In this document: positions 27,723-39,185 of the stretch, piece by piece
Numbering within the stretch: position 1 is the first letter of the stretch
Layout: the number at the start of each line of letters is the position of its first letter
DNA from: Microbacteriaceae bacterium X2B
GTDB taxonomy: Bacteria > Actinomycetota > Actinomycetes > Actinomycetales > Microbacteriaceae
Assembly: GCA_005502445.1 (NCBI GenBank)
Contig: SCPB01000022.1
Location: forward strand, 1-39,185
Direction: 5' to 3'
Length of the DNA: 39,185 bases
Notes under the pieces: model-generated
Database searches by the model: none
What the model saw: only the letters and a program-made list of their open reading frames with translations
What the model was told of the DNA's origin: nothing
Position numbers and translations under genes: made by a program

Positions 27723-28349
27723 ATGGAGGAGTCCGAAGGGGAGCTCGACCGTCGGCTCGAGGGCGACGCGGCCGAAACCGTCATCCGACGCCGCGATCGT
27801 GACGGCGCGGCGTCGGACGAGAGCGTCGAGCGCGACGATGACACCGTCATCCGTCTCATCGAACCGTTCGTGCCGTCGCGCAGCCGACTCGCCGACCGTC
27901 CGGCGCTCCTGATCGATTCGCTCCTGCCACAGCGACCGGGCAGCGCGGTCGAGCCGCCGTCGCGGCAGCGGTCCGGAGCGACCGCGCGCTTCGCCCTGCG
28001 CATTCCAGGCGTCGCGAAGCCGGTAGGGCTCGAGGCCCCGGTGGTCATCGGCCGTCGGCCCGGGGCCAGCCGTGTGCCCGAATCGACCCCGCCCCGCCGC
28101 ATCGTGGTGCCCGCCGATCGCCTGGGGGTCTCGGGCCGGCACGCGCGGATCGAGCAGCTCGGGGAGTCGGTCGTCCTCACCGATCTCGGCTCCAGCAACG
28201 GAACAGTCGTACACTTGCCCGCGGGGCCGCTGCTGCGCCTCCGTCCGGGAGAGTCCTGCGTGGTGCTCCCCGACTCCATCATCGGTCTCGGCGATGGGAT
28301 CGACATCGCCGTCGTGGCGGTCGATCCTCGCTCGGGCGAGGCGACGTGA
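27723..28349 (+). CDS. FHA domain protein
   Basis: Phosphothreonine-binding adaptor. The C-terminal half (about 105-185) is an FHA domain: GRRPG, SGRHARI (S137, H140) and DLGSSNGT (N159) are the phosphopeptide-contact motifs. The N-terminal ~100 residues are charged and probably disordered. They carry two Thr sites in similar contexts, ETVIRR (T19) and DTVIRL (T41). These could be phosphorylated by the kinase encoded two genes downstream and then bound by an FHA domain; that is inference. It is 208 residues long and the first gene of the signalling cluster. Confidence 0.92.
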   Translation: MEESEGELDRRLEGDAAETVIRRRDRDGAASDESVERDDDTVIRLIEPFVPSRSRLADRPALLIDSLLPQRPGSAVEPPSRQRSGATARFALRIPGVAKPVGLEAPVVIGRRPGASRVPESTPPRRIVVPADRLGVSGRHARIEQLGESVVLTDLGSSNGTVVHLPAGPLLRLRPGESCVVLPDSIIGLGDGIDIAVVAVDPRSGEAT

Positions 28350-28425
28350 CGATGGCGGGCGACGGCCGGCAGAGCGCCGCACAATTTCCTTGGCCCGCCC
28401 TCGACGACACCCTCCGGAGTACCCC

Positions 28426-29217
28426 GTGACCGCGCTCGGCCGCAGCACCGTCCGTCACGTCGTCGCGCTGCCCCACCGCGGTGAGGTCGTCGAGCTCTCC
28501 TGGCACGGGGTCACGCACACGGGCTATCGTCGCGCCGCGAACGAAGACAGCTACCTCGCCGACGTGCCGCTGTTCGCCGTCGCGGACGGCATGGGCGGCC
28601 ACGCGCACGGCGACCGCGCCTCCGACTCGGTCGTCCGCAGGCTCCAAGCCGCGGTCGACGGGGACTTCGTCGAGAGCGAGGCGATCGCCGAAGCCCTGCG
28701 CCGTGCCACCTGGGACATCCACGAGCTCGATGAGGAGGATCGCGGGATCGGCACGACCGTGACGGGGATCGCTCTCACGTTGTATCGCGGTCGGCCCGTG
28801 CTGACGGTCTTCAACGTGGGCGACTCGCGCGTCTACAGCTTCATCGGCAACGAGCTCGAGCAGATCACGACCGACCACTCGATGGTGCAGGAGATGGTCG
28901 ACGCCGGCCAGCTCGCCGCCGAGGACGCCGAGAGCCACCCGGAGGCGAACGTCATCACCCGCGCCGTCGGGTTCTCGACCGAACCCGAGATCGACTTCGC
29001 GAGGATCCCGCTCGAGCCGGGGATGCGCCTGCTGCTGTGCTCCGACGGCCTCACCAAGGAGGTGCCGGGCGAGCGACTGCGGCTGCATCTCGCCGCGCGC
29101 CTGAGCGCCCGGGAGACGGCGAACGCGCTTGTCGATGCGGCTCTCGCCCAGGGCGGCCGCGACAACATCACGGTCATCGTCATCGACGTCGTGCGGGCGC
29201 CGGAGCCGGAGGACTGA
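28426..29217 (+). CDS. PP2C-type Ser/Thr protein phosphatase
   Basis: Metal-dependent phosphatase. Motifs in order: RRAANEDSY (D41), VADGMGGHAHGD (D54-G58), GIGTTVTG, NVGDSRVY, TTDHSMVQEM, LLLCSDGLT (D207) and GGRDNITVIVID (D246, N247). All metal-binding aspartates are present. At 263 residues it is only the catalytic domain, without the membrane anchor of mycobacterial PstP. GTG 28426 follows CCGGAG. It lies between the FHA and kinase genes and should reverse the kinase's action. Confidence 0.95.
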   Translation: MTALGRSTVRHVVALPHRGEVVELSWHGVTHTGYRRAANEDSYLADVPLFAVADGMGGHAHGDRASDSVVRRLQAAVDGDFVESEAIAEALRRATWDIHELDEEDRGIGTTVTGIALTLYRGRPVLTVFNVGDSRVYSFIGNELEQITTDHSMVQEMVDAGQLAAEDAESHPEANVITRAVGFSTEPEIDFARIPLEPGMRLLLCSDGLTKEVPGERLRLHLAARLSARETANALVDAALAQGGRDNITVIVIDVVRAPEPED

Positions 29218-29281
29218 TCGGGGAACGGATCGTCTTCGTCACACTCCGATGACGACGGCGCCCGGTGCGCGAGGCTGCTCG

Positions 29282-29287
29282 TACACT
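29282..29287 (+). promoter_or_regulatory. Candidate -10 box before the kinase gene
   Basis: TACACT lies 31 bases before GTG 29319, leaving a short leader with the purine-rich ribosome site GGGAGGGGGGA. No good -35 is seen. Confidence 0.35.
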
Positions 29288-29318
29288 GGGAGGAATCGAG
29301 GCCGGGAGGGGGGATTCC

Positions 29319-30743
29319 GTGGCGCGACGCCGACCATCCGAGCCTCCCGTGCTGTCCGGATTCACGCACATCCGCATGCTCGGCTCCGGCGGGTTCGCCG
29401 ACGTGTTCCTCTACGAGCAGAACATGCCGCGGCGACAGGTCGCCGTGAAGGTCATGCTCGCCGACGTCGTGACCGAGAACGTGCGGCAGATGTTCCAGGT
29501 CGAGGCGAACCTGATGGCCCAGCTCTCGTCCCACCCGAGCATCCTGACCGTGTATCAGGCCAGCATCTCGGCCGATGGTCGCCCGTATCTCGTCATGGAA
29601 CTGTGCTCGGCACAGCTCGCCGAGCGGTACCGCAAGGAGCGACTCCCGGTCGCCGAGGTGCTGCGCATCGCCGTGCAGATCGGCAGCGCGATCGAGACGG
29701 CGCATCGAGCCGGGGTGCTGCACCGCGACATCAAGCCCTCGAACATCCTCATGACCGCCTACGGCCACCCCGTGCTGTCGGACTTCGGGATCGCCGCAAC
29801 GCTCAGCGCGGCCCCCTCCCATGACACGGTCGGCATGTCCATCCCGTGGTCGGCGCCCGAGGTCCTGCTCGATGAGACCCCCGGCGCGGTCACGAGCGAG
29901 GTGTGGTCGCTCGCCGCGACGGCGTACTCGCTGCTCGCCGGGCGTTCGCCGTTCGAGGTCACGGACACGTCGAACACCTCGGTCGAGCTCATCGGGCGCA
30001 TCACGAAGGCGCGCGTGCCCGCGATCGGCCGCGACGACGTCCCCCAGGCCCTCGAAGAGGTTCTGCGCCGAGCGATGACCCGCGATCCCGCGAAGCGGCA
30101 GCAGAGCGCCATCGAACTCGTGCGCGACATCCAGAGGGTCGAGCTCGAGATGGGGCTCGTGCCGACGCACGCGGATGTCGCGATGGACGACTGGGCGCTC
30201 GCGACGGTCAACGATCCCGGCGACCGCACGATCGTGCGGGCCGTTACGCCGACGGCTGCTGCGGGTCGCCCGTCGCGTCGTCGGCGCCGCGCCGCGCTCG
30301 CCGGAGCCGTGGCCGCGTCCGAGGCGAGCGGCGGGTCGACGGCCGGATCGACCGCGGGTCGTGCCGGCGCGGGTCGACGCGCTCTGCGGTCGCGCATCGC
30401 CGTCGCGGCCCTCGTGCTCGTCTCCCTCGTCGTCATCGGCCTCGGGGCGACCGCGACGCTGTTCGCCTTCCAGCCCGATGACGACGCGATACCGCGCGTG
30501 ACGGACGTCCAGGCGGCGATGGACGGGGCGACGGTCGTCTTCAGCTGGACCGACCCGGGCCTGCTCGAGGGGGACGCCTTCCAGGTGCAGATCACCGGCG
30601 GAGCCGCCACGCTGCAGCGCGAGGCCGAGTTCATCGTCGCCGCCGTTCCCGGCGATCGGGTGTGCGTGACCGTGCGCGTCGCGCGCGAAGGCCGGCTCGG
30701 GCCTGCGAGCGGCGAGAAGTGTGCGAACGCGGTCGGAGAGTGA
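29319..30743 (+). CDS. Membrane Ser/Thr protein kinase with FN3-like outer domain
   Basis: Hanks-type kinase: glycine loop MLGSGGFADV (20-29), K44 in VAVKVM, E62, HRDIKPSN (D137, N142), SDFGIA (D155) and WSAPEVL. A flexible linker with RTIVRAVTP (T304) follows. Next come an Arg-rich stretch, one membrane helix (about 360-383) and a ~90-residue outer domain (VTDVQAAMDGATVVFSWTDPG ... DRVCVTVRVAREG) that reads like a fibronectin type III fold. No PASTA repeats are present. The length is 474 residues. GTG 29319 has a strong purine-rich ribosome site. It resembles bifidobacterial Pkb2 in context. The next gene starts seven bases downstream. Confidence 0.93.
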   Translation: MARRRPSEPPVLSGFTHIRMLGSGGFADVFLYEQNMPRRQVAVKVMLADVVTENVRQMFQVEANLMAQLSSHPSILTVYQASISADGRPYLVMELCSAQLAERYRKERLPVAEVLRIAVQIGSAIETAHRAGVLHRDIKPSNILMTAYGHPVLSDFGIAATLSAAPSHDTVGMSIPWSAPEVLLDETPGAVTSEVWSLAATAYSLLAGRSPFEVTDTSNTSVELIGRITKARVPAIGRDDVPQALEEVLRRAMTRDPAKRQQSAIELVRDIQRVELEMGLVPTHADVAMDDWALATVNDPGDRTIVRAVTPTAAAGRPSRRRRRAALAGAVAASEASGGSTAGSTAGRAGAGRRALRSRIAVAALVLVSLVVIGLGATATLFAFQPDDDAIPRVTDVQAAMDGATVVFSWTDPGLLEGDAFQVQITGGAATLQREAEFIVAAVPGDRVCVTVRVAREGRLGPASGEKCANAVGE

Positions 30744-30750
30744 TGCCCTG

Positions 30751-33700
30751 ATGCGCCGATGGACTCGCCCGCGCCGATCGAGCCTGCTCACGGGCGCGAG
30801 CAGCGCGCTCGTGGCCGCCGTCGTCGCGACGATCGCCATCGTCGCACCGGGGTTCGAGGCGCAGCGCCTCGACCTCAACGACGGTGCGGTGTGGGTCGCC
30901 AACGGCGAGCAGCGGTCGGTCGGTCGGGCCAACCTGCAGATCGCGCGCCTCGACACCGTCGTGACGGGTGAGGGCGCCGACCTGCAGCTCGTGCAGTCGG
31001 CCGCCGAGGTCGTCGTCGTCGACCGCGCCAATTCCACCGCCGAGATCCTCGACCCGGCTCGCTCCGAGGTCGCCGAGAGCGTGCCGCTGCCCCCGGACGA
31101 GCCCACGCTCGCGATCGAGGGCGAGACGGCCGTCGTGCACAGCGCCGGCACCGGCGAGACCTGGATCATCCCGCGCCTGCTGTTCCCCGATTTCGACGCG
31201 GCGTCGGCGGCCCCGCTCGTCTTCGGCGCGGGGTCGGCGATCGCGCTGGAGGCGCGGTACGGCGTCGCTGCGGTCTCACCCGCGACGGGGGAGGTGCTGC
31301 AGATCGACCCCGCCGCTCCCGACACGGTGAAGGGCCGGTGGCCGATCGCGATCGACGCCGACTCCGAGGTCGAGATCTCGGTCGCGGGCGACCGGTGGGT
31401 GGTCCTCGACGCCGCGGCGGGCCTGCTTCACACCTCGAGCGGGACGACCGATCTCTCGGCTCTGCTGCCCGTCGGCGCCGATCCCGTCCTCGCGGCGCCC
31501 GACTCGTCCGCTGTCGACGCGATCATCGCCTACCGCGGCGGACTCATCGCGGTCCCGCTGGGAGGGGGAGACCCGCGCGTGGTCGTCGACGGCCGCGACG
31601 GGGCTCCGGCTCGGCCCGTGACGGTCGACGGCTGCGTCTACGCCGCGTGGGCCGATGGGTCCGCCTGGCGCGACTGCGGCGGTGATCCCGTCGCCCTCGC
31701 GCTCATCGGCACCGACCCGGCTTCCTCTCTCGTGTTCGCCGTCAGAGACGATCGCGTCGTCCTCAACGACCGGCTTCGCGGGGCGACCTGGGCCGTCCAG
31801 AGCGACGGCGAGCTCATCGACAACTGGGACGAGCTGCTCGAGGATGAGCAGGACGAGCAGCAGGCCGAGGTCGACGAGCTCGACACGCCGCCCGAGCTCG
31901 AGCTCGCCCAGCAGCCGCCCGTCGCCGTCGACGACGCTTTCGGGGCGAGGCCGGGCCGTTCGACGTCGCTCCCCGTGCTGCTCAACGACACCGACCCCAA
32001 CGGCGACGCCCTCGTGGTGAGCGACTTCGAGGAGGTCGACCCCGAGGTCGGCCGACTCGACGTCGTCGGCAGCGGCCAGCGGCTCCAGCTCACCCTCGCC
32101 CCCGGTGCGAGCGGATCCGTCGCTTTCGCGTACACGATCTCGGACGGCCGGGGCGGCGTCGCCTCCGCGACGGTGACCGTCGAGATCCGGCAGCCCGGTG
32201 AGAACGGCGCACCCGTGCAGGTTCGCGCCTCGAAGACGCTCGTCGCCGAGGGCGGCAGCGTGAGCTCGAGCGTGCTGGGCGAGTGGGTCGACCCCGACGG
32301 CGACCCTGTCTACCTCGCCTCCGCGACGATCGCCGCACCCGACCGGGTCGCCTTCCGGCCCGACGGCCGTGTGACGGTGCAGGAGCTCGGCGGCATCGGC
32401 GAGCTCCGTCCCGTGACCCTCAGCGTCTCCGACGGTCTCGCGGCCGGGACGGGCTCGCTCGCGGTCACCGTGAAGCCGGCGGGCCAGACCCCCATCATCG
32501 CCGACCCCTTCGTGGTGCTCGCCTACGCCGGGCAGGAGGTGCGCATCGAGCCGCTGTCGCACGTGCGCGGCGGCACCGGCCCGATCCGGCTGGGCGCCGT
32601 GCCGCCGAAGCCCGGCGCGACGATCACGCCGAGCCTCGACCGCGGCGTCGTCCGCTTCGTCAGCGACGAGGTGCGCACGCACTACCTCGACTACGTCGTG
32701 ACCGACGGCGAGCAGACGGCGACGGGCGTGATCCGCGTGGAGGTCGCCGCGCCGCCCGACGCGGGCACCGCGCCGATCGCGATCCCGAAGACGGCCTTCG
32801 TGCGCACCCTGAGCAGCGCGACCGTCGCCGTCGCGACGACCGACATCGACCCCGCGGGGGGCGTGCTCGTCGTCACGGGCATCACCGACGTGCCGGTCGA
32901 GAGCGGGATCCGCGCTGAGATCCTCGAGCAGCGCGACATCCGCCTCACCCTCACCCGGCCGCTCGAGGGCCCGACCGGCATCCGCTACGTCATCAGCAAT
33001 GGAGTCGCCGACGCGACCGGCACGATCACGGTCATCGAAATCCCTCCGCTCGACCGCGTGCAGCCTCCCGTCGCCCGCGACGATGCCATCACCGTGCGCG
33101 TCGGCGACGCCGTCACGATTCCCGTGCTCGCGAACGACGAGCACCCCGACGACGAGCCGATCTCGCTCGCGCCCGAGCTGCTCCAGGGTCTCGAGAGCGA
33201 CTCGGGCCTGCTCTTCGTCTCCGGCGATTCGCTGCGATACCTCGCACCCGATGAACCCGGGGAGTTCACCGCCGTCTACGAGGTGCTCGGACCCCTCGGT
33301 CTCGAACGGGCCCAGGCGACCGTGCGCATCAGCGTGCGCGAGGTCGACGAGGCCACCAACTCGGCGCCGGTGACGCGAACCGTGACCGCGCGCGTCATCG
33401 CCGGCGAGACCGTGCGCATCCGCATCCCCGTCGAGGGCATGGATCCGGACGGCGACTCCGTGCAGGTCATCGGCCAGGAGTCCGCGCCCGAGAAGGGCAC
33501 GATCATCGACTCGGGGCAGGACTACCTCGAGTACGAGGCGGGCGTCTACAGCGCGGGCACCGACACCGTGCGCTACACGGTCGTCGACGCACTGGGCGCG
33601 CGTGCGAGCGGCGTCATCCGCGTCGGCATCAGCCAGCGCCTGGAGGGGGCGCGGAATCCCGTCGCCAATGACGACCAGGTCGTCGTGCGCACGGGGGTGA

Positions 33701-36660
33701 GCGTGCTCGTGCCCGTCCTCGAGAACGACACCGACCCCGACGGCTCGCCGTTGCAGGTCGCGGCGGTCGAATCGACCGACGCACAGGCCGAGTCGGAGGT
33801 CGTCGACGGCGAGTACGTGCGCATCACCCCGCCCGAGAGCGAGGGCCGGTACGGATTCGTCTACGCCATCGAGAACGGGATCGGCGGAGCATCCCAGGCC
33901 TTCATCTCCGTCGTCGTGCGCGAGGATGCGCCGCTGACGGCGCCGGTCGCCCGCGACACGGTGCTCACCCTCTCCGACATCCTCGACGCCGAGAGCGTCG
34001 ATGTCGCCGTGCTCGACGGGGTGTTCTTCGCGGAGGGCGAGGTCGGCGACCTCGACCTCTCGCTCGTCGAGGGCTACGAGGGCGGCGCGCGGGTGCTGGC
34101 GAACGGGAAGGTGCGGGTCGAGGTCGGCGAGCGGCGGCAGATCATCCCCTTCGTGGTCCGGCATCCGGTCGACCCGACCGTGCGCGCCTACGCCTTCATC
34201 TGGATCCCCGGTACCGACGACGCCCTCCCGCAGCTGGACAGGCGGGCGCCGCGCATCGAGGTCGTGAGCGAGCAGACCCTGACCATCGACATCAACGACT
34301 ACGTGCTCGCCGTCGGAGACGACGGCGTCCGCATCACCGACTCGGCGACCGTGCGGGCCACCAACGCCAACGGCGACGACCTCGTGGTCGACGACGACAC
34401 CGTGCGGTTCACCTCCGCCGACCTGTACTTCGGGCCCGCGTCGATCTCGTTCGAGGTCACCGACGGATCGAGCGCGAGCGATCCGGATGGCCGCATCTCG
34501 ACGATCGTCCTGCCCATCACGGTGACGCCGCGCGACAACCAGCCTCCCGTGCTCATCGGTGCGGCGATCGAGCTCGAGCCCGGGCAGGAGCGCACGCTCG
34601 ACCTGCTGAGGATCACCTCGTACCCCTACCCCGACGACCTCGACGAGCTCGCCTACGCGATCACCGAGGGTCCGACGACGGGCCTGTCGGCGGTCGTCGA
34701 CGCGCAGCGGCTCGTGCTGCGCCTCGACGACACGGCAGCGAAGGGCACCAGCGCCTCGGTGTCGCTCTCGGTGCGCGACGACGCCGTGGATGGCACCGGA
34801 GGGCGCATCCGGGTGTTCGTCGTTCCGTCGACGAGGCCGTTGGCCAGCCCGGCGGACGACATCGCCATCGCGCCGCGCGGTGAGACGACGACCGTCGATG
34901 TTCTCGCGAACGACCTGGCAGGCAACCCCTTCCCGGACGAGCCGCTGCGCGTCGTCGACATTCGCGGCCTCGACGGCGCCGGGGTGCCCGACGGTGTGAG
35001 AGTCGCCCCGAGCGCCGACGGGCAAAGGCTGCAGGTGACCGTCGCGGAGGGCGCGCAGCCGGCCGACACGAACGTGCAGTACCAGGTCGCCGATGCGACG
35101 GGCGACCCCGATCGCTTCGTCTGGGCAGGGGTGCGCATCTCGGTGCAGGACGTGCCCGATCCCGTGACGGATCTGCGCGTGCAGGCGTACGGCGACCGCT
35201 CGCTCGACATCGCGTGGTCTCCGGGAGCGGCGAACAACGCCCCGATCGAGGGCTTCGAAGCCACCGTGACGCGCGCCTCGGACGGCTCCGTGTTCGCGAC
35301 GGTCGACTGCGAGTTCTCGCCGTGCACCGTTCCGACGCCGGGCAACGGACCCGAGAACCGCGTGCGCATCGCGGTCGCCGCGATCAACGCCCAGGGGGAG
35401 TCGGCGCCGACGACGCTCGCCGACACGGTGTGGTCGGATCTCGTGCCGCCGGCGCCGCCGATCGTCGGCGTCCTGCCGCTCGACCAGGGACTGCGCATCG
35501 GCTGGAGCAAACCGGCGCAGGATGCCGCCGCATCGCCGATCAGCTCCTATCGCGTCGTCGTCGGTTCGGTCGTGCGGCAGCTGACGGTGCCCGCCGGCGA
35601 CCCGACCGGAACGGTCTACTGGCTCAACGTCGTCGACGCCTCCCTCGAGAACGGCACCTCGTACGCGGTTGCGGTGAGTGCGCGGAACGAGTCGTTCGAC
35701 CCTCTTACGCAGTGGAACAGCTCCGAGAGCTCGGGTACCCCCGCCGGCCCGCCCATTCGCGTCGGCACGCCGAGCGCGAGCGGTTCGACCTCCGGCGTCG
35801 GCGGCGACGGCCACAGTGTGAGCGTCTCCTGGGCGGGGGTGTTCGCGCCCAACGGGCGCGCCGTGCAGAACCACTACGTGTGGATCAGCGACTCGGGCTC
35901 GGCACCTGGTTGCACCGTGACGGGAGTCGAGAAAGGCGCACCCTCGCACTCGCAGCCCGCCGGTACTCGGCTCGTGAACGGTGATGCGACATCGCTCACC
36001 GTCAGCGGCCTCTCGGCCGACGTGGAGTATCGCGTCGTCGTCTACGCCTACAACGGCCAGGGCTGCACGGCGAGCGCCGAGGTGCGCGCCACGCCGCGCG
36101 CGACGCCCGGAAAGGTCACGAGCATCGTGACGAGCCGGCCGAAGCCGAACGGCGAGGGCCGATGGGACATCGAGCTCCAATCGGCCGCGACATCGACGGG
36201 CGAGGCGGCGAGCCTCGTGCGCTACCGGCTGATCGCCGACGGCACGGCTCTGCCGGACTCCGGCGTCGTGCCGGTCGGCGGGTTCCTCACTTCGGCCGAC
36301 GGCGCGCACTACGGCCGAGGTCTCCAGCTGCAGGTGCAGGCCTGCGAGCAGAACGAGAGCCTGCTCTGCGGGGCGTGGTCCGATGCGTTCGTCATTGCGA
36401 CCGCCGTGCTCATCGACGCGCGGCCCGTCTTCACCGAGACGGCGACCGCACCGGCCGAGCGCGTCGTGACGATCGACTGGACGCCCGTCACGGGGACCGC
36501 CTACGACGCCGTCGAGACCGAATGCCTCGGCGGCACCGTCCTGACGTTCGACCCCGTCGACGGCTCGTGCACGATGGCCATGTCGCCCGGCGGATCAGCG
36601 AGTCTCGCCATCACCGTCACGGATGACGGGGTCGCCTACGACAGAAGCTACGCGCAGTGA
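30751..36660 (+). CDS. Giant membrane-anchored Ig-like/FN3 repeat protein
   Basis: 1969 residues. An RR-containing basic start and a hydrophobic segment (about 12-32) form a signal anchor. Residues 35-360 are beta-rich, possibly a propeller. An acidic linker (EDEQDEQQAEVDELD) follows. From about 389 to 1467 eleven modules recur every 93-102 residues, several with the pattern VAxDD...VRxG...VPVLxNDxDPDG. From about 1469 to the end there are FN3-type modules (VTDLRVQAYGDRSLDIAWSPG, PPAPPIVGVLPLDQGLRIGWSKP and others). There is no LPxTG. It is probably an outward rod tethered to the membrane, serving adhesion or sensing. Start ATG 30751 with GGTCGGAGAG upstream, directly behind the kinase gene. 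Confidence 0.9.
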   Translation: MRRWTRPRRSSLLTGASSALVAAVVATIAIVAPGFEAQRLDLNDGAVWVANGEQRSVGRANLQIARLDTVVTGEGADLQLVQSAAEVVVVDRANSTAEILDPARSEVAESVPLPPDEPTLAIEGETAVVHSAGTGETWIIPRLLFPDFDAASAAPLVFGAGSAIALEARYGVAAVSPATGEVLQIDPAAPDTVKGRWPIAIDADSEVEISVAGDRWVVLDAAAGLLHTSSGTTDLSALLPVGADPVLAAPDSSAVDAIIAYRGGLIAVPLGGGDPRVVVDGRDGAPARPVTVDGCVYAAWADGSAWRDCGGDPVALALIGTDPASSLVFAVRDDRVVLNDRLRGATWAVQSDGELIDNWDELLEDEQDEQQAEVDELDTPPELELAQQPPVAVDDAFGARPGRSTSLPVLLNDTDPNGDALVVSDFEEVDPEVGRLDVVGSGQRLQLTLAPGASGSVAFAYTISDGRGGVASATVTVEIRQPGENGAPVQVRASKTLVAEGGSVSSSVLGEWVDPDGDPVYLASATIAAPDRVAFRPDGRVTVQELGGIGELRPVTLSVSDGLAAGTGSLAVTVKPAGQTPIIADPFVVLAYAGQEVRIEPLSHVRGGTGPIRLGAVPPKPGATITPSLDRGVVRFVSDEVRTHYLDYVVTDGEQTATGVIRVEVAAPPDAGTAPIAIPKTAFVRTLSSATVAVATTDIDPAGGVLVVTGITDVPVESGIRAEILEQRDIRLTLTRPLEGPTGIRYVISNGVADATGTITVIEIPPLDRVQPPVARDDAITVRVGDAVTIPVLANDEHPDDEPISLAPELLQGLESDSGLLFVSGDSLRYLAPDEPGEFTAVYEVLGPLGLERAQATVRISVREVDEATNSAPVTRTVTARVIAGETVRIRIPVEGMDPDGDSVQVIGQESAPEKGTIIDSGQDYLEYEAGVYSAGTDTVRYTVVDALGARASGVIRVGISQRLEGARNPVANDDQVVVRTGVSVLVPVLENDTDPDGSPLQVAAVESTDAQAESEVVDGEYVRITPPESEGRYGFVYAIENGIGGASQAFISVVVREDAPLTAPVARDTVLTLSDILDAESVDVAVLDGVFFAEGEVGDLDLSLVEGYEGGARVLANGKVRVEVGERRQIIPFVVRHPVDPTVRAYAFIWIPGTDDALPQLDRRAPRIEVVSEQTLTIDINDYVLAVGDDGVRITDSATVRATNANGDDLVVDDDTVRFTSADLYFGPASISFEVTDGSSASDPDGRISTIVLPITVTPRDNQPPVLIGAAIELEPGQERTLDLLRITSYPYPDDLDELAYAITEGPTTGLSAVVDAQRLVLRLDDTAAKGTSASVSLSVRDDAVDGTGGRIRVFVVPSTRPLASPADDIAIAPRGETTTVDVLANDLAGNPFPDEPLRVVDIRGLDGAGVPDGVRVAPSADGQRLQVTVAEGAQPADTNVQYQVADATGDPDRFVWAGVRISVQDVPDPVTDLRVQAYGDRSLDIAWSPGAANNAPIEGFEATVTRASDGSVFATVDCEFSPCTVPTPGNGPENRVRIAVAAINAQGESAPTTLADTVWSDLVPPAPPIVGVLPLDQGLRIGWSKPAQDAAASPISSYRVVVGSVVRQLTVPAGDPTGTVYWLNVVDASLENGTSYAVAVSARNESFDPLTQWNSSESSGTPAGPPIRVGTPSASGSTSGVGGDGHSVSVSWAGVFAPNGRAVQNHYVWISDSGSAPGCTVTGVEKGAPSHSQPAGTRLVNGDATSLTVSGLSADVEYRVVVYAYNGQGCTASAEVRATPRATPGKVTSIVTSRPKPNGEGRWDIELQSAATSTGEAASLVRYRLIADGTALPDSGVVPVGGFLTSADGAHYGRGLQLQVQACEQNESLLCGAWSDAFVIATAVLIDARPVFTETATAPAERVVTIDWTPVTGTAYDAVETECLGGTVLTFDPVDGSCTMAMSPGGSASLAITVTDDGVAYDRSYAQ

Positions 36661-36745
36661 GGCAGGCTGGGGGTCGCACGGGCATCCCGATCGTCCTGCA
36701 TCGCTATCCCGCCCCGCCGCCCGCCCCACGAGAGGGAGCCCACCG

Positions 36746-37714
36746 ATGACCATGACCCCCGACCAGGCGCGCTGGTTCGCCGACATCGCCGGGCGCATCG
36801 TCGCGAACGTCGAGCAGGTGCTGCTCGGCAAGACCTACGTGATCCGCCTGAGCCTCACGGCGATGCTGAGCGAGGGGCACCTGCTGCTCGAGGATGTTCC
36901 CGGCACGGGCAAGACCTCGCTCGCGCGAGCCCTCGCGCAGAGCATCCGCGGCACGACGACGCGCGTGCAGTTCACCCCTGACCTGCTGCCGGGCGACATC
37001 ACGGGCATCACGGTGTACGACCAGCGGTCGGGTGAGTTCTCGTTCCACCGAGGGCCGGTCTTCGCGACGATCGTGCTCGCCGACGAGATCAACCGCGCCT
37101 CGCCCAAGACCCAATCGGCGCTCCTGGAGGTGATGGAGGAGGGGCACGTCACGATCGACGGCGTCGAGCACGACGTCGAAGCCCCCTTCCTCGTCATCGC
37201 GACGCAGAACCCCATCGAGCAGGCGGGAACCTACCGCCTGCCGGAGGCGCAGCTCGACCGGTTCCTCATGAAGACCGCGATCGGCTATCCGGATCACGCG
37301 GCGACCGTGCGGATCCTCGACGGGGCGGGCGGTCCACGCGCCTCGAAGCTCGAACCGGTCGTCGGACTCGACGTCGTGCGCGACCTCATCGGCGCCGCGC
37401 GCACCGTGCACGTGGACCCGGTCGTGACCGACTACGTCGCCCGCCTCGTCGAGGCGACGCGGGCCCACGCCGATGTCCGGCTCGGCGCGAGCGTGCGCGG
37501 CGCGCTCGCGCTCGTGCGCTGCGCGAAGACCTTCGCCGCCATGGAGGGCCGGCACTACGTGATCCCCGACGACGTGAAGTCGCTCGTGGAACCCGTGCTC
37601 GGGCACCGGCTGATCCTCGACACGGAGGCCGAGTTCGACGGCGTGACGGCGGCGTCGGTCATGGCGCAGGTGCAGCTCGAGACCGCGCCGCCGAGCGATC
37701 GGGTCGCTGTGTGA
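36746..37714 (+). CDS. MoxR family AAA ATPase
   Basis: Chaperone-like AAA+ ATPase. Walker A EDVPGTGKTSLA (K56), Walker B VLADEINRASPKTQSALLEVMEE (D113, E114), sensor 1 region IATQNPIEQAGTYRLPEAQLDRF and the C-terminal lid. It is 322 residues long. MoxR proteins usually act with the neighbouring DUF58 protein in maturation of membrane or periplasmic complexes. ATG 36746 follows GAGAGGGA; ATG 36752 is possible. It overlaps the DUF58 gene (GTGA). Confidence 0.95.
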   Translation: MTMTPDQARWFADIAGRIVANVEQVLLGKTYVIRLSLTAMLSEGHLLLEDVPGTGKTSLARALAQSIRGTTTRVQFTPDLLPGDITGITVYDQRSGEFSFHRGPVFATIVLADEINRASPKTQSALLEVMEEGHVTIDGVEHDVEAPFLVIATQNPIEQAGTYRLPEAQLDRFLMKTAIGYPDHAATVRILDGAGGPRASKLEPVVGLDVVRDLIGAARTVHVDPVVTDYVARLVEATRAHADVRLGASVRGALALVRCAKTFAAMEGRHYVIPDDVKSLVEPVLGHRLILDTEAEFDGVTAASVMAQVQLETAPPSDRVAV

Positions 37715-39123
37715 CGCTGCGCTCCGCCGATCGCTCCACCCGCTCCGCCGCGCGCGGTCGCGAGGCCGAGCGCCCCCATCGCGCCGTCGACGAGGGCACT
37801 CTCGCGTCGACGGTGACGACGGCGCGCACGCGCATCGTCGGCGCGCGCACGGGGTGGACGGCGGATGCACTCGTCGCGACCGTGCGCGGCGCGCGGGCCG
37901 TCGGTGCGGCGATCGATCGCGCGAGGGAGGCCGCCTCCTCCGTCGTGACGCCGCTGGGGTGGACGATCGCCGCCGCCGCGCCGCTCGCACTCGTCGCCGG
38001 GTACGCGTGGGGCTGGCGCGAACTCGTCGTCATGGGTGTGGCCGGCCTCGCTCTCGCCCTCGTCGCACTGCTGTACCTCATCGGCCGGACGCCGCTCTCC
38101 GTCGCGCTCTCGACGCCGCCCAGTCGCATCGCGGTCGGCGACGAGGCGATCGCCTCGCTCGATGTCGAGAACGTCTCCCGCCGCCGGGCCTTCGGTGTCG
38201 CGCTCGACGTGCCGGTGGGGGAGGGGATCGTGCCGGTGACCCTGCCGGGGCTCGCGCGCGGCGCGGTACGGCGCTGCGACATCCCGGTGCCGACGACGCG
38301 ACGAGGTCGTCTCGTGCTCGGTCCCGTGCGCACGGTGCGCGCCGACCCGATCGGGCTCGTGCGCCGCGAGGTCGCCTTCACCGAACCGGTCGAGATCATC
38401 GTGCATCCGCGCACGACCGACATCCCCTCGACCTCGAGCGGGCTCGTACGCGACCTCGAGGGCCAGCCCACCCGCGACCTCACGTCGAGCGACCTCGCCT
38501 TCCATGCACTGCGCGAGTACACCCCGGGCGACGATCGCCGGCACATCCACTGGAAGTCGACGGCGAAGACCGGCACCTTCATGGTCCGGCAGTTCGAGGA
38601 GACGCGGCGCTCGCACCTCGTCGTCGCGCTCAGCATCGCGAGCATCGACTTCGCCTCGGACGCCGAGTTCGAGCTCGCCGTTAGCGTCGCCGGCAGCCTC
38701 GGCGCACGCGCGATCCGCGATGCCCGAGACGTGTCCGTCATCGTCTCGGCGCTCACCCCCGAGTTCGCCAAGCACACCGTCGTCGCCGTACGCCCCCTCG
38801 CGACGCGCGCGCCGATGCGGCTGCTCGACGATCTGGCCCTCGTCGACCTCAGTCCTTCCGCTCTCGGCATCGTCGACCTGTCGCGGCTCGCGGGCGCCGA
38901 CGCGCGAGGCGTCTCGGTCGCGTTCCTCGTCGTCGGGTCGAGCGTCCGGCCCTCCCGACTGCGCAGCGCCGCCGCGGCGTATCCGCCGTCGGTCGCGGTC
39001 GTCGCGATCCAGTGCGACCCGGCGAGCATCCCCGGCCGGCGGCGGTTGAGCGGACTCAGCGTCGTCACGGTCGGCTCGCTGCCGGACCTGCGCCGCGCGA
39101 TGCGAGGAGCGGCGGAATGGTGA
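37711..39123 (+). CDS. DUF58 membrane protein
   Basis: 470 residues. A basic and Ala-rich N-terminal part is followed by two close membrane helices (about 83-127). A beta-rich region comes next, then the diagnostic DUF58 motif REYTPGDDRRHIHWKSTAKTG (about 268-288). A von Willebrand A-like C-terminal part completes it. The partner of MoxR in most genomes. GTG 37711 overlaps the MoxR stop (GTGA). The stop overlaps the start of the next gene. Confidence 0.93.
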   Translation: MTLRSADRSTRSAARGREAERPHRAVDEGTLASTVTTARTRIVGARTGWTADALVATVRGARAVGAAIDRAREAASSVVTPLGWTIAAAAPLALVAGYAWGWRELVVMGVAGLALALVALLYLIGRTPLSVALSTPPSRIAVGDEAIASLDVENVSRRRAFGVALDVPVGEGIVPVTLPGLARGAVRRCDIPVPTTRRGRLVLGPVRTVRADPIGLVRREVAFTEPVEIIVHPRTTDIPSTSSGLVRDLEGQPTRDLTSSDLAFHALREYTPGDDRRHIHWKSTAKTGTFMVRQFEETRRSHLVVALSIASIDFASDAEFELAVSVAGSLGARAIRDARDVSVIVSALTPEFAKHTVVAVRPLATRAPMRLLDDLALVDLSPSALGIVDLSRLAGADARGVSVAFLVVGSSVRPSRLRSAAAAYPPSVAVVAIQCDPASIPGRRRLSGLSVVTVGSLPDLRRAMRGAAEW

Positions 39124-39185
39124 CTCGTCCCCAGCTCCGTCGGCCCCGGGTCGCCGCGGTCCTGCGACCGCCCCCGCCCCGCCCC
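39117..39185 (+). CDS. Start of next cluster gene, expected transglutaminase-like (partial)
   Basis: ATG 39117 (or GTG 39120) overlaps the DUF58 stop and has GCGAGGAGCGGCGGA upstream. The 23 visible codons read as a basic, Pro/Arg-rich N-terminus and run off the window. In MoxR-DUF58 clusters the next gene is usually a membrane transglutaminase of the TgpA type; that identity is inferred from position only. Confidence 0.5.
   Translation, partial: MVTRPQLRRPRVAAVLRPPPPRP

What the first reader, a model, noticed from the sequence alone, without database searches (positions are those of the whole stretch)
27723..39185. Complete kinase-FHA-PP2C-FN3-MoxR-DUF58 cluster (PFNA-like) in a probable Microbacteriaceae genome
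Six consecutive plus-strand genes encode an FHA adaptor, a PP2C phosphatase, a membrane kinase, a giant FN3/Ig protein, a MoxR ATPase and DUF58, and a seventh begins at the edge. The same set was described in Bifidobacterium (PFNA cluster), where the FN3 protein is discussed in host sensing. The order here puts fha and the phosphatase first. I infer one system: phospho-signalling controls MoxR/DUF58-assisted assembly or cross-linking of a surface fibre. In a likely free-living organism the ligand would not be host cytokines, so the original function may be general.
Basis: partly seen in the sequence, partly recalled or inferred. Interest (0 to 1): 0.8.

Follow-up and report, generated by a model that had tools for sequence, protein, structure and literature searches.

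The report
Secretion-linked PFNA cluster with inactive transglutaminase
A gene set known from gut bifidobacteria as a host-sensing operon sits here beside a type VII secretion motor and carries a transglutaminase that has lost its catalytic residues, which points to a general, phosphorylation-controlled secretion or cell-envelope machine rather than a host sensor or a cross-linker.

Summary
The six genes are real. The seventh, cut by the contig end, is inferred to continue on contig C43 as a TgpA-like transglutaminase-fold protein, followed by a zinc-ribbon/FHA protein and an FtsK-family ATPase. The ATPase is T7SS type (best structural match EccC 4nh0, E 7e-29). The set is not unique to Bifidobacterium: the FN3 propeller profile hits 144 of 248 order genomes, 120 at E<=1.2e-58. 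In 39 of 76 genomes with both in the printed rows, FN3 and an EccC lie within 30 kb. In 100 family genomes the short ATPase co-occurs with one unlinked WXG100 gene (both 55, ATPase only 1, WXG100 only 15, neither 29); the transglutaminase gene does not (p=0.27). None of 62 distinct PFNA-type transglutaminase cores has the catalytic Cys, few have His; three ordinary MoxR-DUF58-transglutaminase operons keep both. Fibre cross-linking is therefore not supported. I propose a phospho-regulated T7SS-like machine: kinase/PP2C/FHA control, MoxR-DUF58 assembly, FN3 as envelope-spanning element, pseudo-transglutaminase as scaffold. Secretion is inferred. The modules are separable, and Bifidobacterium has the core without a nearby ATPase (0 of 36 loci).

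The parts
27723..28349 (+). FHA-domain protein (208 aa), SSNGT motif present
   Evidence: PF00498 E 3.8e-8; motif; syntenic in 9 of 9 fetched family genomes
28426..29217 (+). PP2C phosphatase with DGMGG, GDSR, SDGL and DNIT motifs; start inferred, the mechanical ORF opens at 28072
   Evidence: PF13672 E 1.2e-11; motifs; start candidates
29265..30743 (+). Membrane Ser/Thr kinase (HRDIKPSN, DFG, VAVK), one hydrophobic stretch, C-terminal part outside (inferred) and FN3-like by eye
   Evidence: PF00069 E 1.5e-41; motifs; hydropathy 372-404
30721..36660 (+). Giant envelope protein: N-terminal hydrophobic stretch, beta-propeller, Big_9/cadherin-like repeats, two fn3 domains; start 30721 GTG or 30751 ATG
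   Evidence: Pfam; hydropathy; model pLDDT 81.7; PDB match 1l0q YVTN propeller + PKD E 2.5e-12
36746..37714 (+). MoxR AAA+ ATPase; mechanical ORF opens at 36623
   Evidence: PF07726 E 7.7e-62; start candidates
37711..39123 (+). DUF58 protein with two N-terminal hydrophobic stretches
   Evidence: PF01882 E 2.9e-11; hydropathy
39117..39185 (+). First 23 codons of the transglutaminase-fold gene, cut by the contig end; the rest is inferred to be G000:C43:3-2270 (P0001), Cys->Ala, His->Thr, Asp kept
   Evidence: same order contiguous in G074; residues

Best explanation
The window holds the left part of a nine-gene locus, FHA-PP2C-[kinase-FN3-MoxR-DUF58-pseudoTGM]-ZnR/FHA-EccC-like ATPase; the right part is on C43. 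It is a phospho-regulated type VII secretion-like envelope machine. Shown: gene content, synteny in relatives, ATPase type, loss of the transglutaminase catalytic residues, co-occurrence of the ATPase with an unlinked WXG100 gene. Inferred: the C22-C43 join; the membrane kinase reads the envelope state and phosphorylates Thr on machine parts; the FHA proteins (on the ATPase itself in type II loci, in trans here) bind them and PP2C resets; MoxR with DUF58 assembles or remodels the complex; the FN3/Big_9 protein, with its propeller near the membrane, spans the envelope; the polytopic pseudo-transglutaminase is a binding scaffold, not an enzyme; the ATPase exports the WXG100 protein and perhaps other cargo.
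For: ATPase: TIGR03928 EssC E 2.7e-51 and TIGR03924 EccCa E 9.4e-37, both far below their equivalog cut-offs; N-terminal hydrophobic stretch 21-67 and Walker A GTTGSGKS; model pLDDT 80.7 best matches EccC 4nh0 E 6.9e-29 (TM 0.50) and EssC 4lya E 6.8e-24, ahead of FtsK motors from 6.4e-15. It is one of two over-cut-off PF01580 proteins of the genome, the other presumably ordinary FtsK. WXG100: one gene in G000; W-x-G and C-terminal Y-x-x-x-E invariant in six aligned proteins. Co-occurrence in 100 family genomes: 55 both, 1 ATPase only, 15 WXG100 only, 29 neither, Fisher p 4e-13, relatedness not corrected. Synteny: 9 of 9 fetched relatives carry FHA to TGM, 7 of 9 with the ATPase next downstream. 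Type II: PFNA core with an EccC gene in the same fetched locus in named Microbacterium, Herbiconiux, Agreia, Arthrobacter and Georgenia; FN3 and EccC within 30 kb in 39 of 76 order genomes with both in the printed rows, 11 families. Pseudo-TGM: 0 Cys in 62 distinct cores, 0 of 65 frames by alignment column, with His in 8, against 3 of 3 canonical MoxR-DUF58-TGM operons with Cys and His and two other own-genome transglutaminase-core proteins with the triad by eye.
Against: In the family the TGM gene is not associated with the WXG100 gene (46/16/24/14, p 0.27), so the PFNA core and the ATPase/WXG100 pair are separable modules: ATPase loci without the core in G016, G097, G001, G085, G053, G045 and G063, and at a separate place from it in G002 and G033 (G016 and G097 have no TGM hit at all). 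G024 and G055 keep the core without an adjacent ATPase. No ATPase or WXG100 in the fetched flanks (up to 10 kb) of 36 of 36 Bifidobacterium loci. In 37 of the 76 genomes the listed FN3 and EccC are apart: 20 on one contig, 17 on different contigs; 2 of the 39 linked ones (G180, G235) are Bifidobacterium, where the neighbouring EccC locus looks separate (G180 read). Of 15 second clusters fetched, 10 show an EccC, but I chose most of them because searches had placed one nearby. Some type II TGMs keep His. No secretion has been shown.
Confidence: 0.55

Rival explanations
1. Two neighbouring but independent systems: a PFNA-core phospho-signalling and adhesin module (kinase-FN3-MoxR-DUF58-TGM), and a minimal ATPase/WXG100 module with PP2C and FHA, kept together because they share the phosphatase or regulation.
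For: Each module occurs without the other at a locus; the TGM gene is not associated with WXG100 (p 0.27); Bifidobacterium has the core without the ATPase nearby (0 of 36).
Against: The core is interleaved between PP2C and the ATPase, not merely beside them; second, divergent copies of the core sit by a full-length EccC in several genomes, and FN3-EccC linkage recurs in 11 families.
Confidence: 0.25
2. One reading: kinase-controlled assembly and transglutaminase cross-linking of a surface fibre or adhesin that senses or binds external ligands.
For: Large Ig/FN3 surface protein; papers report B. longum FN3 binding TNF-alpha and Pkb2 phosphorylating the MoxR protein (PMC8430577, passages and section 3).
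Against: Catalytic Cys absent in 62 of 62 distinct cores and His in 57 of 65 frames; canonical paralogues keep both. The cluster is order-wide, so host cytokines are unlikely to be its general ligand. This tells against cross-linking, less against ligand binding as such.
Confidence: 0.08
3. Cell-wall or division-site homeostasis machine in which the FtsK-like ATPase moves DNA or remodels the membrane, not a secretion motor.
For: FtsK-superfamily ATPase; kinase-PP2C-FHA sets elsewhere regulate cell-wall synthesis (recalled).
Against: Fold and sequence rank EccC/EssC above FtsK motors; strong co-occurrence with a WXG100 gene.
Confidence: 0.12

Closest known systems
PFNA operon of Bifidobacterium (pkb2-fn3-aaa-atp-duf58-tgm, with prpC, a hypothetical gene and fha in some species)
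   Same: Same five core genes in the same order, plus phosphatase and FHA genes; profile matches in 36 named Bifidobacterium loci, all five genes in 35.
   Different: FHA and PP2C come first here; a ZnR/FHA gene and an EccC-like ATPase follow the TGM. [quoted passage not shown]
T7SSd and T7SSe of Garrett et al. 2024 (PMC11217815)
   Same: Theme of EssC-type ATPase, WXG100, membrane kinase and a very large Ig-like envelope protein; phosphatase and FHA genes in T7SSe (section read).
   Different: Main text has 0 occurrences each of MoxR, DUF58, transglutaminase and fibronectin. In B. mellis a locus resembling T7SSd by gene types, with its own kinase, lies about 25 kb from the PFNA cluster. The window's ATPase has no FHA hit and its WXG100 gene is unlinked. 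TsdI was not compared with the FN3 protein.
Canonical MoxR-DUF58-TgpA operons
   Same: MoxR, DUF58 and TgpA-like transglutaminase order; the trio is described as frequent in PMC6803598 (passages, citing Wong and Houry 2012).
   Different: The three read here keep GYCxHFA and HAWPE; the PFNA type reads GDxEQYA-like with no Cys.
T7SSa (ESX) EccC
   Same: Fold of the ATPase (4nh0).
   Different: 917 aa against about 1500 in full-length EccC; low-scoring against TIGR03924/TIGR03925; EccB, EccD, EccE and MycP were not searched for.

Membership tests
PFNA operon | pkb2-fn3-aaa-atp(MoxR)-duf58-tgm in this order | tested here: met
   the order across the contig break rests on G074 and other relatives
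PFNA operon | homologous, not just similar, to the Bifidobacterium genes | tested here: met
   profiles built from the window's family only hit all five genes in 35 of 36 Bifidobacterium loci; the other, L199, starts inside tgm
PFNA operon | restricted to Bifidobacterium / host-associated | tested here: not met
   FN3 propeller profile in 144 of 248 order genomes; named Microbacterium, Arthrobacter, Cellulomonas and others
Active transglutaminase (TgpA type) | catalytic Cys | tested here: not met
   Ala in P0001; 0 of 62 distinct cores
Active transglutaminase (TgpA type) | catalytic His | tested here: not met
   Thr in P0001; relatives: His in 8 of 65 frames, 25 of 81 rows of the named set
Type VII secretion system | EccC/EssC-type membrane ATPase | tested here: met
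   (on C43); NCBIfam equivalog cut-offs not reached
Type VII secretion system | WXG100 protein | tested here: met
   one in the genome, unlinked; co-occurrence with the ATPase
Type VII secretion system | secretion of WXG100 or other cargo by the ATPase | not testable with these tools
   needs experiment
T7SSa (ESX) | EccB, EccD, EccE, MycP | not tested
   not searched in the genome
[quoted passage not shown] linked WXG100 | tested here: not met
   no FHA hit on the 917-aa ATPase; WXG100 on another contig, and about 0.8 Mb away in the single-contig genome G059
T7SSd | large Ig-like TsdI homologous to the FN3 protein | not tested
   TsdI sequence not compared

The most novel reading that the evidence does not exclude
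The PFNA core is the envelope module of an undescribed T7SS subtype of Actinomycetota: type II loci carry it with a linked FHA-bearing EccC, type I loci such as this one with a shortened EccC, FHA proteins in trans and a WXG100 gene elsewhere. Its defining new part is a catalytically dead transglutaminase recruited, with MoxR-DUF58, as an assembly or gating scaffold. Bifidobacterial PFNA would then be a secretion or envelope machine, and cytokine binding by FN3 a side effect.
Probability: 0.45. Interest if true: 0.82.

Novelty: new variant of a known kind. Interest (0 to 1): 0.68.

Why it matters
If right, it joins two literatures that I found no paper joining: the bifidobacterial PFNA operon, treated as a species-specific host-sensing operon with a transglutaminase enzyme, and the T7SS subtypes of Gram-positive bacteria. 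It gives MoxR-DUF58 a concrete candidate client complex, shows a pseudo-transglutaminase recurring across an order, and makes the function testable in harmless soil actinobacteria.

Tried and rejected
Host-cytokine sensing as the ancestral function: disfavoured by distribution. Cross-linking by an active TGM: rejected on residues. PFNA in Bifidobacterium being the same locus as T7SSd: not supported in the one genome read (G180, B. mellis), where a T7SSd-like locus lies apart; that label is by gene types, its WXG100 hit is weak (18 bits) and its EccC has no Pfam FHA hit, although T7SSd ATPases are described with FHA domains. WXG100 beside the cluster: none; the genome's only PF06013 hit is on C19. 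PFNA TGM tied to WXG100: no association. Order-level presence of WXG100 as a test: uninformative, 229 of 248 genomes have one.

Limits. In one search I transcribed tables by hand and chose cut-offs after seeing the values; relatedness is not corrected for; the TGM cut-off mixes both cluster types. print only the best rows, so one search uses 120 FN3 and 135 EccC genomes, not all hits, and its EccC rows are not all type II. Searches used proteins picked by similarity to P0001 or to a profile of PFNA-type TGMs, not by that residue; one search includes duplicate loci. In one search several rows were read in the wrong frame and were replaced. FHA on type II EccC was tested by Pfam in L179 only and seen by eye in L119 and L124. 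Most named EccC frames run off the fetched locus; only L234 and L264 are near full length. The short/full split of EccC at order level was not finished. The phylum search gave 23 of 346, but many of those hit only the Big_9 part of the profile. Hydropathy is a simple window average.
Full report
OBSERVATION. The six reported genes are present, on the plus strand and in the stated order. Starts need small corrections: PP2C about 28426, MoxR 36746 or 36752, FN3 protein 30721 or 30751. Catalytic motifs of kinase and PP2C and the FHA SSNGT motif are present. The window is a whole contig, G000:C22, ending at 39185. The cut seventh gene starts at 39117. The genome has three Transglut_core hits; one lies in a 5'-open frame at the very start of contig C43, with TgpA_N and Transglut_core domains. 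In G074, same genus, DUF58, this TGM, a zinc-ribbon/FHA gene and an FtsK-family gene follow each other. I therefore take C43 as the continuation; this is inference from synteny.

WHAT FOLLOWS ON C43. After the TGM come a ZnR/FHA protein and a 917-aa FtsK/SpoIIIE protein. The only PF06013 (WXG100) hit of the genome is elsewhere, on C19. The 917-aa protein matches EssC and EccC models far below equivalog cut-offs, has one long N-terminal hydrophobic stretch (21-67; two helices in the model) and a model (pLDDT 80.7, pTM 0.65) whose best PDB matches are the T7SS ATPases EccC 4nh0 (E 6.9e-29, TM 0.50 by query) and EssC 4lya (6.8e-24); FtsK DNA motors follow from 6.4e-15. Its second P-loop region reads GSGAH, whereas the family consensus is GSGKS.

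SYNTENY IN THE FAMILY. Nine relatives' loci were fetched. All 9 have FHA-PP2C-KIN-FN3-MoxR-DUF58-TGM; in 7 of 9 the short ATPase is the next gene, or the next after ZnR/FHA (not in G024, G055); ZnR/FHA follows the TGM in 7, is moved in G024 and was not detected in G071.

MODULES. Over 100 family genomes, short ATPase (E<=1e-60) and the unlinked WXG100 (profile E<=1e-20) occur together in 55, ATPase alone in 1 (a 75% complete genome), WXG100 alone in 15, neither in 29. Of the 15, several have a weaker ATPase hit (for example G012, G056, G067) or are incomplete (G039, G081); they are counted as misses. TGM (E<=1e-93) against WXG100 gives 46/16/24/14, p 0.27. So ATPase and WXG100 form one module, the PFNA core another. 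Loci show the ATPase with PP2C, and in part FHA or ZnR/FHA, without the core in G016, G097, G001, G085, G053, G045 and G063 (some of these genomes have a type II cluster elsewhere, e.g. G045 and G063; G016 and G097 have no TGM hit); G002 has both modules at two places; in G033 the ATPase locus lacks the core and its TGM is on another contig. In the window the core is nested inside the ATPase module. In G073 a MoxR-DUF58 pair lies near the ATPase.

TYPE II LOCI. Second TGM copies in family genomes belong to second PFNA-like clusters with FN3, MoxR, DUF58 and TGM, and in part ZnR/FHA, PP2C, FHA and kinase genes. I fetched 15 of them, most because searches had placed an EccC near; 10 show one in the fetched stretch, its frame about 1500 aa where complete. 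The EccC of L179 carries an FHA domain (PF00498 E 6e-12). The same arrangement occurs in other families (G304, G106) and in named Microbacterium, Herbiconiux, Agreia, Arthrobacter and Georgenia loci. Among 44 named non-Bifidobacterium loci, 11 show an ATPase within the fetched flank; many flanks end before that place, and two of the 11, Schumannella, are type I like the window. At order level, 144 of 248 genomes hit the FN3 propeller profile at E<=1e-10, 120 of them in the printed rows at E<=1.2e-58, and 231 of 248 an EccC profile at E<=1e-30. With the rows printed, 76 genomes have both; in 39 the two lie within 30 kb, in 11 families; 20 are further apart on one contig and 17 on different contigs. 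By my own arithmetic a random pair would fall that close in about 2% of cases.

THE TRANSGLUTAMINASE IS A PSEUDOENZYME. P0001 reads GDAEQYA and LTAWVE where active proteins have Cys and His. In one search, 43 rows (some the same genome twice) have A, Q, E or G at the Cys place and S, T, A or D at the His place. In one search, 30 of 30 rows lack Cys. Pooled and reduced to distinct cores: 62, none with Cys (A 28, D 11, E 9, Q 8, G 3, S 3). A recount by alignment columns on 65 distinct frames gives 0 Cys and 8 His, while the three canonical controls give Cys and His. The named set (81 rows with P0001) also has no Cys, but its search pattern favoured this; within it 33 of 36 Bifidobacterium proteins have Ser, 2 Asp and 1 Gly, and none has His. 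Against full inactivity, 25 of those 81 rows keep His, in proteins with Asp at the Cys place, and Ser could in principle be nucleophilic. Controls: three canonical MoxR-DUF58-TGM operons of the same family keep GYCxHFA and HAWPE, and two other transglutaminase-core proteins of the window genome keep Cys and His by eye. A PDB search aligns the family with TgpA 6g49 (E 2e-9).

THE FN3 PROTEIN. Its first 480 residues form a beta-propeller and a first repeat (pLDDT 81.7), closest to an archaeal surface-layer YVTN propeller with PKD domain, then NirF, BamB and AztD among others. Big_9 and fn3 repeats follow. An N-terminal hydrophobic stretch and only a weak one at 1880-1899 suggest it is anchored by its N-terminus.

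THE WXG100 PROTEIN. Among ten genomes searched, G000, G059, G084 and G071 have exactly this one; G024 has one of another type. Six aligned copies share W-x-G and Y-x-x-x-E, the latter being the T7SS export signature as I recall it. In the single-contig genome G059 it lies about 0.8 Mb from the cluster. Its neighbour in G000 is a HisKA/HATPase histidine kinase, and in G059 what looks like groEL by eye.

BIFIDOBACTERIUM. Family f4 is Bifidobacteriaceae: the contig length 1,958,815 of G180:C2 equals that of B. mellis NZ_KQ033885.1 (L239). Of 36 named loci, 35 show all five core genes, the other being cut; PP2C in 17; ATPase and WXG100 in 0 within the fetched flanks, which are shorter than 10 kb on one side in L190, L199 and L202; the WXG profile comes from six Microbacteriaceae-type proteins and may miss divergent ones. 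These 36 are what a capped list returned, not the genus. In G180 a locus with a weak WXG100 hit, kinase, small membrane protein, giant protein, 1524-aa EccC and small FHA-like gene lies about 25 kb away.

LITERATURE. PMC8430577 (passages and section 3) states that the cluster is unique to bifidobacteria, that Pkb2 phosphorylates the MoxR protein, and that TGM is presumably a cysteine protease. PMC6803598 (passages) reports positive selection and notes that MoxR-DUF58-transglutaminase trios are common elsewhere. PMC11217815 (abstract, two sections, passages) describes T7SSc-j; transglutaminase, MoxR, DUF58 and fibronectin occur 0 times in its main text. PMC12067865 (passages) compares the mycobacterial moxR operon with PFNA. 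PMC5720513 (passages) describes a T7SS cluster with esxA/esxB, eccC and eccB in Actinotignum schaalii and a second eccC elsewhere, with no MoxR or fibronectin; PMC11004387 (passages) mentions a T7SS in Bifidobacterium only in a comparison. Searches linking PFNA or MoxR-DUF58 with T7SS listed no paper that by title or abstract makes the link, nor an inactive PFNA TGM; apart from those named here the listed papers were not opened. The library lacks most subscription papers; the 2018 and 2022 PFNA papers were seen only as references, and supplements could not be read.

MECHANISM. Best reading: phosphorylation by the membrane kinase, read by FHA proteins and reversed by PP2C, controls assembly by MoxR-DUF58 of an envelope complex of ATPase, pseudo-TGM and FN3 protein that exports WXG100-type cargo. 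The control and export steps are inference. The strongest counter-evidence is the separability of the modules, which keeps the two-systems rival at 0.25.

VERDICT. A real, conserved locus; membership in PFNA is met except for the claimed restriction to bifidobacteria; T7SS-like by motor and WXG100 partner, with secretion untested; transglutaminase catalytic residues not met. New variant of a known kind.

Noticed in passing
G000:C19:83338-83625 (L058): The single WXG100 gene of this genome sits directly downstream of a histidine-kinase gene; in G059 (L060) response regulator, histidine kinase, WXG100 and a groEL-like gene are neighbours, and an unnamed Bifidobacteriaceae genome (L273) shows a similar two-component neighbourhood by eye.
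   Followed up: partly
L178 5983-18457; L180 5930-18922: Some genomes carry two full-size FN3 proteins in tandem in one cluster.
   Followed up: no
L005 3203-5953 (C43): Second P-loop region of the window genome's short ATPase reads GSGAH while the family consensus is GSGKS.
   Followed up: no
L271 14981 to L272 10931: B. mellis locus resembling T7SSd: weak WXG100 hit, kinase, small hydrophobic protein, giant protein split over two fetched pieces, 1524-aa EccC, FHA-like gene and small genes.
   Followed up: partly
L179 9771-10517 and equivalents in L117, L118, L124: Conserved gene of about 250 aa between kinase and EccC in type II loci; FHA-like by eye; the L179 copy, the only one scanned, has no Pfam match.
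   Followed up: no
window 1-27575: Left of the cluster: genes such as a PLP-dependent decarboxylase, rho, release factor, prmC, F-type ATP synthase subunits, then an aminotransferase and an FAD oxidoreductase on the minus strand.
   Followed up: no
G438, G449, G475, G548: Propeller-covering FN3 matches outside the order (families f32, f60, f75, labelled same phylum), hinting at transfer or an older origin.
   Followed up: no
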